From: Geodermatophilus sabuli
GTDB taxonomy: Bacteria > Actinomycetota > Actinomycetes > Mycobacteriales > Geodermatophilaceae
Direction: 5' to 3'
DNA length: 64,000 nt
NCBI RefSeq assembly: GCF_010686765.1
Contig: NZ_JAAGWF010000002.1
Span: 124,001 to 188,000 of the forward strand
This document shows, piece after piece, positions 42,659 through 48,172 of this stretch. The notes under the pieces are model-generated. The model was not told the origin of the DNA. It made no database searches and was given only the letters and a program-made list of their open reading frames with translations. The position numbers and the translations under genes are program-made. Position 1 is the first letter of the stretch. Every line of letters starts with the position of its first letter.

Positions 42659-45600
42659 GTGTTCAGCCGAATCGTCGTCGTCAACCGGGGCGAACCCGCC
42701 ATGCGCCTGATCCGGGCGGTGCGCGAACTGGACGCCGAGCACGGCACCACGACCCGCGTCATCGCCCTGCACACCGAGTCCGAGCGCCGGGCGACGTTCG
42801 TGCGCGCCGCCGACGAGGCCGTCGTGCTCCGGGAGACCGGCGCGGGCAACCCCTACCTCGACCACGCCGAGCTCGGCCGGGCACTGCGGGCCGCGCGCGC
42901 CGACGCCGCGTGGGTCGGGTGGGGGTTCGTGGCCGAGGACCCGGCCTTCGCCGAGCTGTGCGCGGAGCTCGGGGTGGTCTTCATCGGCCCCTCGCCCGAG
43001 GCCATGCGGCTGCTGGGCGACAAGGTCGAGGCCAAGGTCCTCGCCGAGGCCAACGGGGTGCCCGTCGCCCCGTGGAGCCGCGGCCCGGTGGAGGGCCTGG
43101 ACGACGGCCGCCGGCACGCCGCCGCGATCGGCTACCCGCTCATCGTCAAGGCCCGCAGCGGTGGCGGCGGCCGCGGCATCCGCGTCGTCCGGTCGGAGGA
43201 GGAACTCGAGGAGGCCCTCACCCGCACCCAGGTCGAGGCGCAGCGGACCTTCGGCGACCCCGTCGTCTTCATGGAGCGGCTGGTCGAGGGCGGCCGGCAC
43301 GTCGAGGTGCAGATCGTCGCCGACGCCCACGGCGGCGTGTGGGCGCCCGGCGTCCGCGACTGCTCGGTGCAGCGGCGCAACCAGAAGGTCCTGGAGGAGT
43401 CCAGCTCCCCGGCGCTGCGGCCCGAGCAGGCCGCGGCGCTGCGCGAGTCCTCGATCGCCCTCGTGCGGGCCGCCGGGTACGTCGGCGCCGGCACCGTCGA
43501 GTTCCTGTACCAGCCGGCCGAGGAGTCGTTCACCTTCCTCGAGGTCAACACCCGGCTGCAGGTCGAGCACCCGGTGACCGAGGAGACGACCGGCCTGGAC
43601 ATCGTGAAGCTGCAGCTCCAGGTGGCCGCGGGCGAGCGCCTGGTCGGTGACCCGCCGCCGGAGCAGGGGCACGCGGTGGAGGCCCGGCTCACCGCCGAGG
43701 ACGCCGAGGCCGGCTTCGCGCCCGCGCCGGGGCAGGTCGAGCTGCTCCGGCTGCCGACCGGACCGGGCGTGCGGGTGGACACGGGCATGGGCGTCGGCGA
43801 CGTCATCCCGCCCGCCTACGACTCCATGGTCGCCAAGGTCATCGCCTGGGGCCGGGACCGTCCCGAGGCGCTGGCCCGGCTCCGGGTGGCCCTGCGCGAG
43901 ACGACCGTCGTCCTGCGCGGCGGCACCACGACGAAGTCCTTCCTGCTCGACCTCCTGGACCGCCCCGAGGTCGTCTCCGGCACCGCGGACACCGGCTGGC
44001 TGGACCGCACCGGGACCGCCGCCGCGGCCGTGCCGGTGGGCTCGGCGTGGGCGGCGCTGGCGCAGGTGGCCATCGACGTCTCCGACGCCGAGGAGGCGTG
44101 GGAGCGGGCGGCCTTCCTCGCCTCGGCTCGGGGCGGGCGGCCGCGCGCGCCGCACGAGGTCGGCCGCGCCGTGGACCTCGGGTACCGCGGTCAGGTCTAC
44201 CGGCTCACCGTCGCCCGGCTGGGCGGCGACCGCTACCGGGTGGGCCTCGACGGCCGGCACGTGGACGTCGAGGTGGACCGCCTGGGCCCGCTGGAGAGCC
44301 GGCTGACCGTCGGTGGCCGGCGGTTCTCGATCGTGGCGGTGACCGCACCGGGCTCGCACCTGGTCGAGGTCGACGGCGTCACCCACCGGGTCGGCCGCGA
44401 CGCCGGCGGCACGGTGCGCGCGCCGGCGCCCGCGGTCGTCGTCGCCGTCCGCGTGAAGGCGGGGGAGGACGTCGAGGCCGGCCAGACGGTCGCCGTCGTG
44501 GAGAGCATGAAGATGGAGACCGCGGTGCGCGCGCCCTTCGCCGGGCGGGTGCGCGAGGTGATCGCCGCGGTGAACGCGCAGGTGGACGCGGGTGCGGCGC
44601 TGCTCAGCCTGGACCGCGCCACGGACGACGCCGCGGAGACCCCCGGTGAGCGGGTGACCTTCCCCGACGAGGACGGCACGGCCGGGGCGGCCGAGCCGCG
44701 GGAGCGGGCGCTGGCCCTGCTCGACGGACTGCGGGCCCTGATCACCGGCTACGACGTCAGCGCGGCGCACGCCCGCGCCCTGGTCGAGGAGTACGGCCGC
44801 GTCCGCGGCGAGCTCCCGGTCGAGGACCCGGAGCAGCTGCACCACGAGCTCGAGGTGCTCACCACGTTCGCCGACCTCGCCGAGCTGTCCCGCAACCGCC
44901 CGGCCAGCGAGGAGGAGGAGGCCGACCAGCAGGTCCACAGCCCGCGCGAGTACTTCCACGCCTACCTGCACTCCCTGGACGTCGAGCGGGAGGGGCTGCC
45001 GGAGAGCTTCCGCGGCCGGCTGAGCCGGGCGCTGCGGCACTACGGCGTCGACGGCGCCGGCGTGGAGGACCTCGAGCCCTCGCCGGCGCTCCAGGCGGCG
45101 GTGCACCGGGTGTTCCTCGCCCAGCAGCGGATCGGTGACCAGCTGCCCGCCGTCCTGGCGCTGCTCGACCGCTGGCTGACCGCCCAGGCGCTGCCGCCGG
45201 ACCCGCTGCGGTCGGAGATGGGCGAGGTGCTCGACCGGCTGGTCGTCGCCACCCAACTGCGCTACCCCTCCGTCGGCGACCTGGCCCGGGCCGTCCGGTT
45301 CCGGCACTTCGAGGAACCCGTGGTGCGGCAGGCGCGGCAGGAGGTGATCGAGGAGGCCGACCGGCTGCTCGGCGGCCTGCAGGAGGGCGGCACCGGCGGC
45401 GACCTCGACCGCATCGAGGCACTGGTCGCCAGCCCCGAGCCGCTCATCAGGCTGCTCGCCCAGCGGTTCGGGCGGGAGACGACCGTCCCGGACCCGGTGC
45501 TGGAGGTGCTGACCCGCCGGTACTACCGCAGCCGTGACCTGGAGGGTCTGCGGTCCTTCCTCGTGGACGGGCTGTCGTGCGTGGCCGCCGACTACGACCT

Positions 45601-48172: not shown

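What the first reader, a model, noticed from the sequence alone, without database searches (positions are those of the whole stretch)
42659..48172. A bacterial single-chain carboxylase built like the eukaryotic ACC
The 1,837-residue chain has BC, biotin domain (Lys618), a long central region and CT in the eukaryotic ACC order. Segments such as RLNLWRLKNFDG and AYTDKVLRSRARGTVYPYEL read like the ACC-central and CT-entry blocks of yeast and animal ACC. Most bacteria use split AccABCD or AccA/AccD-type subunits; the known bacterial single-chain LCC is only about 1,100 residues. This gene bears on how the eukaryotic enzyme arose.
Basis: partly seen in the sequence, partly recalled or inferred. Interest (0 to 1): 0.85.

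Follow-up and report, generated by a model that had tools for sequence, protein, structure and literature searches.

The report
Eukaryote-type carboxylase in putative PHB cassette
The gene encodes a one-chain acetyl-CoA carboxylase built like the yeast and animal enzyme, a kind already described from another soil bacterium, but here it sits between two genes that, with a polymer synthase gene found nearby in many relatives, look like a malonyl-CoA-fed route to the storage plastic PHB.

Summary
The GTG ORF 42659-48172 (1,837 aa) is a single-chain carboxylase, BC - biotinyl (Lys618) - central - CT. Pfam ACC_central passes its cut-off. A profile of 78 central regions hits 12 PDB sequences, 11 of them eukaryotic-type ACCs. 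The AlphaFold model of the central region (pLDDT 91.5) matches yeast and human ACC at Z about 31 over about 520 residues. It is not unprecedented: SACE_4237 of Saccharopolyspora erythraea (PMC6491548) is the characterised prototype, and its authors already proposed the link to eukaryotic ACC. New here is the setting. The window's protein lies in a different clade from the Saccharopolyspora homologue and is accessory: found in 47 of 112 family genomes. It co-occurs with a KAS III carrying an unrecognised N-terminal domain (both in 43 genomes, adjacent in 41), follows a reductase gene, and a PHA synthase lies within 10 kb in at least 33 of 45 KAS genomes, mostly on the opposite strand. Best reading: dedicated malonyl-CoA supply for PHB synthesis that bypasses thiolase. 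The chemistry is untested; the window's genome keeps PhaC on other contigs and also has thiolases.

The parts
42659..48172 (+). single-chain multidomain acetyl/acyl-CoA carboxylase, 1,837 aa, GTG start
   Evidence: a GAGAGG stretch lies just upstream of the GTG (sequence printed)
42659..44008 (+). biotin carboxylase domain, residues 1-450; the 11 positions examined (chosen from recall of E. coli AccC) are invariant in 80 of 80 rows
44009..44410 (+). BT-like linker region, residues 451-584
   Evidence: only a sub-threshold Pfam ACCA_BT match (15.7 bits, cut-off 27)
44411..44608 (+). biotinyl (BCCP) domain, residues 585-650, Lys618 at 44510-44512
44615..46588 (+). central region, residues 653-1310, predicted to fold like the eukaryotic ACC central domain
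46559..48169 (+). carboxyltransferase domain, residues 1301-1837
41755..42570 (+). short-chain dehydrogenase, 271 aa; best-scoring NCBIfam model acetoacetyl-CoA reductase TIGR01829 (280 bits, below the 302.1 cut-off); passes the cut-off of NF009466, 3-oxoacyl-ACP reductase FabG (237.2, cut-off 222)
48206..50164 (+). 652-aa KAS III fusion, 33 nt after the ACC stop; Cys403, His539 and Asn569 kept in 55 of 55 rows
48206..48979 (+). N-terminal domain of the KAS fusion (residues 1-258), no Pfam match over cut-off and no PDB match
49076..50041 (+). KAS III (FabH-like) domain, residues 291-612

Best explanation
The gene encodes an actinobacterial homodimer-type multidomain acetyl/propionyl-CoA carboxylase. 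BC carboxylates the biotin on Lys618, the central domain acts as the scaffold that places the BC-BCCP half on the CT dimer, and CT transfers the carboxyl group to acetyl-CoA to give malonyl-CoA (architecture shown; activity inferred from SACE_4237). In this family of bacteria it appears to be a dedicated enzyme of a storage-polyester cassette rather than the housekeeping ACC. The adjacent KAS III fusion would condense malonyl-CoA with acetyl-CoA to acetoacetyl-CoA (as NphT7 does), the upstream SDR would reduce it to (R)-3-hydroxybutyryl-CoA, and a PHA synthase, encoded nearby in many relatives and elsewhere in this genome, would polymerise it. That would bypass the reversible thiolase step of classical PHB synthesis with an ATP-driven, irreversible one. 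Gene linkage is shown; substrate use and product are inferred.
For: ACC architecture and fold. Accessory status: the CT is found in 47 of 112 family genomes (39 of 96 that are at least 90% complete) and 23 of 26 of the window's genus code. Linkage: KAS in 45 of 112, both in 43, adjacent on one strand with 24-69 nt between the matched stretches in 41. By my own gene calls and clustering, KAS lies near ACC in 13 of 27 clade-B loci (window counted) against 1 of 54 others; SDR 10 of 27 against 1 of 54; PhaC 7 of 27 against 0 of 54. PhaC_N lies within 10 kb of KAS in at least 33 of 45 KAS genomes (the PhaC list was truncated and I copied 47 of its rows). KAS sits with SDR and PhaC also where ACC is not beside it (L147, L148, L150, L152). 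Three PhaC groups, 39-53% identical to one another, occur near it.
Against: In the window's own genome no PhaC lies near the cassette; its two full PhaC_N matches and one partial one are on other contigs, and 12 of 45 KAS genomes showed none within 10 kb. Where PhaC is near, it is on the opposite strand in 31 of 33, so it is a neighbour, not part of the same operon. PhaC is common in the family (94 of 112). The window's genome has eight Thiolase_N matches, six of them strong, so the classical route is open to it. The SDR misses the acetoacetyl-CoA reductase cut-off but passes one FabG (ACP) cut-off. The KAS scores below the cut-offs of all seven KAS III models listed, and the best solved relatives are named 3-oxoacyl-ACP synthases; sequence does not tell malonyl-CoA from malonyl-ACP. 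Thirteen of 26 clade-B genomes, nine of them Rhodococcus, have this ACC without the KAS, as do four family genomes. KAS itself is rare outside the family: 4 of 296 class genomes, own included. No activity was measured.
Confidence: 0.55

Rival explanations
1. It is the ordinary essential ACC of the organism, as SACE_4237 is in S. erythraea, making malonyl-CoA for fatty acids; the neighbours only draw on the same pool.
For: SACE_4237 complements an E. coli accB mutant and is essential (PMC6491548). Same architecture. The neighbouring SDR and KAS III are also of fatty-acid-synthesis type.
Against: Not found in 65 of 112 family genomes, nor in 57 of the 96 that are at least 90% complete. The window's genome has four other CT and four other BC matches; which of them is the housekeeping ACC was not worked out. 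The adjacent KAS tracks it.
Confidence: 0.22
2. The cassette makes something other than PHB: a 3-hydroxyacyl chain, or a methyl-branched one from propionyl-CoA via methylmalonyl-CoA, for a lipid or secondary metabolite.
For: SACE_4237 also carboxylates propionyl-CoA (PMC6491548). The N-terminal domain of the KAS fusion is unrecognised. The SDR passes a FabG cut-off.
Against: PHA synthase is a recurrent neighbour, also where ACC is not adjacent. Gene clusters shared by four or more loci showed no other recognised pathway, but genes under 80 aa (an ACP, for instance) were not called and several clusters were not identified.
Confidence: 0.18
3. Convergent or mis-assembled fusion with only a superficial likeness to eukaryotic ACC.
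For: Sequence identity in the central domain is only 14-18% in the fold matches.
Against: All 31 Foldseek matches with E up to 0.001 are ACCs of the eukaryotic type, the profile search agrees, and 79 further full-length chains were aligned.
Confidence: 0.01

Closest known systems
SACE_4237, actinobacterial homodimeric multidomain ACC (Livieri et al. 2019, PMC6491548)
   Same: single chain of about 200 kDa with BC, BCCP, a central domain homologous to eukaryotic ACC, and CT; CT grouped with eukaryotic ACC in the paper and nearest to it here
   Different: the window belongs to another clade than the Saccharopolyspora hirsuta homologue (27 against 53 rows; that this homologue is the SACE_4237 orthologue is inferred); accessory in its family; next to SDR and KAS III genes, and in many relatives near PHA synthase, a setting that the parts read (1-3 of 5) do not mention
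Eukaryotic ACC (yeast ACC1, human ACC1/ACC2)
   Same: domain order; predicted central-domain fold (Z about 31); CT nearest among solved structures
   Different: 1,837 against roughly 2,200 aa or more (chain lengths); eukaryotic sequences branch outside the actinobacterial rows (weak)
Bacterial single-chain LCC
   Same: one chain, biotin-dependent
   Different: another domain arrangement, homohexamer and no central region, according to PMC6491548
NphT7 acetoacetyl-CoA synthase and the classical phaCAB operon
   Same: KAS III with Cys-His-Asn; SDR reductase, and PHA synthase near it in relatives
   Different: the KAS carries a 258-aa N-terminal domain without recognised relatives; an ACC is encoded beside it; no thiolase among the neighbours that I identified, though the genome has thiolases elsewhere. 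NphT7's activity is recalled; its engineering use is in papers seen only as search listings

Membership tests
Actinobacterial homodimeric multidomain ACC (SACE_4237 type) | BC, BCCP, central region and CT in that order on one chain of about 200 kDa | tested here: met
Actinobacterial homodimeric multidomain ACC (SACE_4237 type) | central region homologous to that of eukaryotic ACC | tested here: met
Actinobacterial homodimeric multidomain ACC (SACE_4237 type) | BT domain between BC and BCCP | tested here: inconclusive
   Pfam ACCA_BT below cut-off; region not folded
Actinobacterial homodimeric multidomain ACC (SACE_4237 type) | homodimer active on acetyl- and propionyl-CoA | not testable with these tools
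   needs protein; catalytic residues examined are kept
Actinobacterial homodimeric multidomain ACC (SACE_4237 type) | main essential ACC of its host (true of SACE_4237; perhaps not defining) | tested here: inconclusive
   not found in 65 of 112 family genomes, which speaks against it for the family but not for this strain
Eukaryotic ACC | CT belongs to the eukaryotic clade itself | tested here: inconclusive
   yeast and Chaetomium lie outside the actinobacterial rows, 100/97, but on 202 columns with long branches, an unsettled bootstrap and one misplaced split row
[quoted passage not shown]
   1,837 aa with a central domain
PHB biosynthesis operon | PHA synthase in the operon | tested here: not met
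   none beside the window's cassette; own PhaC genes elsewhere. Within 10 kb in at least 33 of 45 KAS genomes, but on the opposite strand in 31 of the 33
PHB biosynthesis operon | acetoacetyl-CoA reductase | tested here: inconclusive
   best-scoring NCBIfam model but 280 of 302.1 bits needed; a FabG model passes (237.2, cut-off 222)
NphT7-type acetoacetyl-CoA synthase | KAS III fold with Cys-His-Asn | tested here: met
   (by sequence; triad positions recalled; the KAS domain was not folded)
NphT7-type acetoacetyl-CoA synthase | uses malonyl-CoA, not malonyl-ACP | not testable with these tools
   needs assay

The most novel reading that the evidence does not exclude
A natural PHB pathway in Actinomycetota that bypasses thiolase: a eukaryote-type single-chain ACC encoded beside a KAS III with a new domain and an acetoacetyl-CoA reductase, with a PHA synthase nearby in most relatives that hold the KAS, so that storage polyester is made through malonyl-CoA at the cost of ATP. 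It would be the natural counterpart of the NphT7 bypass that engineers have built. The 258-aa N-terminal domain of the KAS, without a recognised fold relative, might dock the ACC or the granule.
Probability: 0.43. Interest if true: 0.72.

Novelty: new variant of a known kind. Interest (0 to 1): 0.5.

Why it matters
The eukaryote-type ACC in bacteria is already in print, so the evolutionary headline is not new. What would matter is that part of this ACC family has been recruited, with a KAS III fusion and a reductase, into what looks like a supply line for a storage polymer. Malonyl-CoA-driven acetoacetyl-CoA synthesis was added to cyanobacteria and yeast by engineers (search listings). A natural gene set doing the same would offer ready enzymes, and would explain why some actinobacteria carry this ACC beside other acyl-CoA carboxylases.

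Tried and rejected
phmmer with the single central region (649 aa) found only one chance hit in the PDB (E 0.24); the profile of 78 rows was needed.

The KAS N-terminal domain was folded alone (pLDDT 87.7). The best Foldseek match has E 2.9, and VIA-align reported one row at Z 2.1 among 147 chains; Pfam gave only sub-threshold DUF hits and the PDB profile search nothing. No conclusion about its fold beyond 'not recognised'.

A CT tree with yeast, Chaetomium and four split CTs of the window's own genome is too long-branched to order the deep splits: one split row (L085, branch length 10) fell among the actinobacterial rows, which I treat as an artefact. LCC was not included as such, so the claim that eukaryotic ACC descends from this family was not tested further; Livieri et al. 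report their own tree.

A query for the upstream flavoprotein gene was given two bases out of frame (40138 instead of 40136), so its lack of hits means nothing.

The idea that the cassette stands in for a missing thiolase is rejected: the window's genome has eight Thiolase_N matches, six strong (made while checking this report).

Rows dropped or misplaced: L001 and L082-L086 were left out of the alignment; L065 and the 20 loci L087-L106, which do not cover the whole chain, were left out of the 80-row tree. L065, a truncated contig, is counted among the 54 'other' loci although it is probably clade B. L086, L113 and L115 were skipped as short KAS pieces. Genes in the loci were called by a simple script of mine, with contigs of unequal flank, so neighbour counts are lower bounds. 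PhaC in the seven loci was checked by Pfam in three (L011, L023, L003); the rest rest on clustering.

Paper searches for a natural ACC-KAS III-PHA cluster (the last found no paper) listed none that I recognised as describing one. Only listings and abstract starts were seen there, and the library is open-access papers only.

Full report
What is there. The reading frame from 42659 to 48172 encodes 1,837 residues. In 76 of 80 related loci the residue aligned to this GTG is M, V or L, and a GAGAGG stretch precedes it (sequence printed). Pfam finds biotin carboxylase, biotinyl, ACC_central and carboxyltransferase domains in the eukaryotic order, with ACC_central at 35.4 bits against a cut-off of 23.2. 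The same model hits once in the window's genome and in none of 14 control genomes. Eleven BC positions (chosen from recall of E. coli AccC), the biotin lysine and four CT glycines are invariant in 80 of 80 full-length rows.

Is the central region really that of eukaryotic ACC? Yes. A profile of 78 bacterial central regions against the PDB gives 12 sequences with E up to 1; 11 are ACCs of the eukaryotic type, the best at 2.9e-15. AlphaFold2 on that alignment gives pLDDT 91.5 and pTM 0.87. All 31 Foldseek matches with E up to 0.001 are such ACCs, titled yeast, Chaetomium or human where an organism is named. VIA-align gives Z 31.5 over 521 residues at 5.3 A to a human ACC1 filament, and Z 30.8 over 359 residues at 3.8 A to yeast AC3-AC5; the first unrelated chain has Z 9.0. 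With a CT profile, 20 sequences named acetyl-CoA carboxylase come first (97-80 bits), then split subunits (37 bits and less).

Known precedent. Livieri et al. 2019 (PMC6491548; parts 1-3 of 5 read) describe SACE_4237 of Saccharopolyspora erythraea: a chain of about 200 kDa with the same domains, active as a homodimer on acetyl- and propionyl-CoA, essential, with CT and BC trees joining actinobacterial and eukaryotic enzymes. They propose that the fusion arose in or near actinobacteria, and name several actinobacterial families that hold orthologues. The finding as stated is therefore a member of a known kind.

Distribution and clades. ACC_central is found in 29 of 396 genomes drawn from the phylum. 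In a quick tree of BC and CT columns of 80 chains the window falls in a group of 27 (SH-aLRT 100, one side of a branch, midpoint root), with Geodermatophilaceae, Rhodococcus, a Mycobacterium, a Micrococcus MAG and two Thermoleophilaceae or Solirubrobacteraceae MAGs among others. The Saccharopolyspora hirsuta homologue lies with the other 53. In a rough CT tree with two eukaryotes the eukaryotes lie outside the actinobacterial rows; branches are long, the bootstrap had not settled, LCC was not included and one split row was misplaced, so this is weak evidence on origin. Identity to yeast over the kept columns is 72 of 202 for the window and 52 of 182, 53 of 174, 44 of 176 and 37 of 188 for the four split CTs of the same genome. 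The window's genome appears to be Geodermatophilus: the genome of L007 (Geodermatophilus sp. DSM 45219) carries the KAS hit at the same contig coordinates as G715, which is labelled same genus.

The gene lies in a cassette. 88 nt upstream ends an SDR of 271 aa. Its best-scoring NCBIfam model is acetoacetyl-CoA reductase, below the cut-off (280 of 302.1), while a 3-oxoacyl-ACP reductase FabG model passes (237.2, cut-off 222). 33 nt downstream starts a 652-aa protein: an N-terminal domain of 258 aa followed by a KAS III domain with Cys403, His539 and Asn569 in 55 of 55 rows; it scores below the cut-offs of all seven KAS III models listed, and its best solved relatives are named 3-oxoacyl-ACP synthases. 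Among 81 loci (window included; genes called by my own script) the KAS gene lies near the ACC in 13 of 27 clade-B loci and 1 of 54 others, the SDR in 10 and 1, and PHA synthase in 7 and 0 (PhaC confirmed by Pfam in three of the seven). Genome-wide, KAS occurs in 13 of 26 clade-B genomes and 1 of 24 clade-A genomes, 50 of the 80 loci being tested. In 296 genomes drawn from the class it is in 4, own included.

In the 112 genomes of the family, KAS is in 45, the ACC CT in 47, both in 43, neither in 63 (Fisher p 8e-24, not corrected for relatedness). In 41 of the 43 the two genes are neighbours on one strand with 24-69 nt between the matched stretches. KAS without ACC occurs in G687 and G725; ACC without KAS in G685, G689, G690 and G760, and the stretches taken around these four ACC genes show no KAS or PhaC. 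So the ACC is an accessory gene in this family and travels with the KAS.

The link to PHA. A PHA-synthase N-terminal domain lies within 10 kb of the KAS in at least 33 of 45 KAS genomes (with 47 rows copied from the truncated list). In 31 of the 33 it is on the opposite strand, so it is a neighbouring unit rather than part of the operon. In L147, L148, L150 and L152 the KAS sits with SDR and PhaC although no ACC lies beside it; in L149 (G682) KAS and SDR are together without ACC or PhaC. The PhaCs fall into three groups 39-53% identical to one another, so KAS III and PhaC have stayed or come together with different synthases.

Results against. PhaC is common in the family (94 of 112). In the window's own genome the nearest relative of the cassette PhaC (62-66% identical to the first group) is on contig 31 and a second PhaC is on contig 3, while the KAS gene of the window is followed by an opposite-strand gene with histidine-kinase ATPase and cyclic-nucleotide-binding domains. 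That genome also has eight Thiolase_N matches, six of them strong, so the classical thiolase route is open to it; the cassette would be a parallel, driven entry, not a replacement for a missing gene. Thirteen clade-B genomes have the ACC without the KAS.

Mechanism. Shown: architecture, predicted central fold, conserved catalytic residues, gene linkage. Inferred: acetyl-CoA to malonyl-CoA by the ACC; malonyl-CoA plus acetyl-CoA to acetoacetyl-CoA by the KAS fusion; reduction by the SDR; polymerisation by PhaC. The decarboxylative condensation would pull carbon into polymer where the thiolase equilibrium would not; the abstract start of PMC5432608 in the listing mentions that constraint. Engineered uses of NphT7 appear in search listings. 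Eight paper searches listed no natural ACC-KAS III-PHA cluster that I recognised (listings and abstract starts only, open-access library).

Verdict. Observation confirmed; the headline interpretation is right in structure but already in print; the neighbourhood makes it a new variant worth testing.

Noticed in passing
48206-48979: N-terminal domain of the KAS III fusion: confident AlphaFold model (pLDDT 87.7) without a Pfam match over cut-off, a PDB-sequence match or a credible Foldseek match.
   Followed up: partly
L010, L013-L019, L022, L025, L044: Rhodococcus, Speluncibacter and Aldersonia carry the window's ACC clade but no KAS fusion in the genome at E 1e-60 (completeness of these genomes not told); what the ACC serves there is open. 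L012, another Rhodococcus, does have it.
   Followed up: no
L031 (KAS 10872-12824 -, SDR 13144-13977 +): A Dermatophilaceae MAG outside the window's ACC clade that still has KAS and SDR near the ACC, hinting that the cassette is old or has moved.
   Followed up: no
L067 and L078: Nocardioides immobilis has two different copies of the multidomain ACC.
   Followed up: no
L009 18666-18971, L011 13352-13687, L023 5864-6187, L031 14518-14853, L152 3368-3703: A small gene recurs in part of the cassettes; Pfam shows helix-turn-helix in the two tested, L011 and L031. Possibly a regulator.
   Followed up: partly
L002 14503-15348 and relatives: A 281-aa alpha/beta hydrolase gene recurs in seven loci and lies between KAS and PhaC in L002 and L158; it might be a depolymerase or thioesterase.
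   Followed up: no
50174-51544 (-): A protein with cyclic-nucleotide-binding and histidine-kinase ATPase domains follows the KAS gene on the opposite strand.
   Followed up: no
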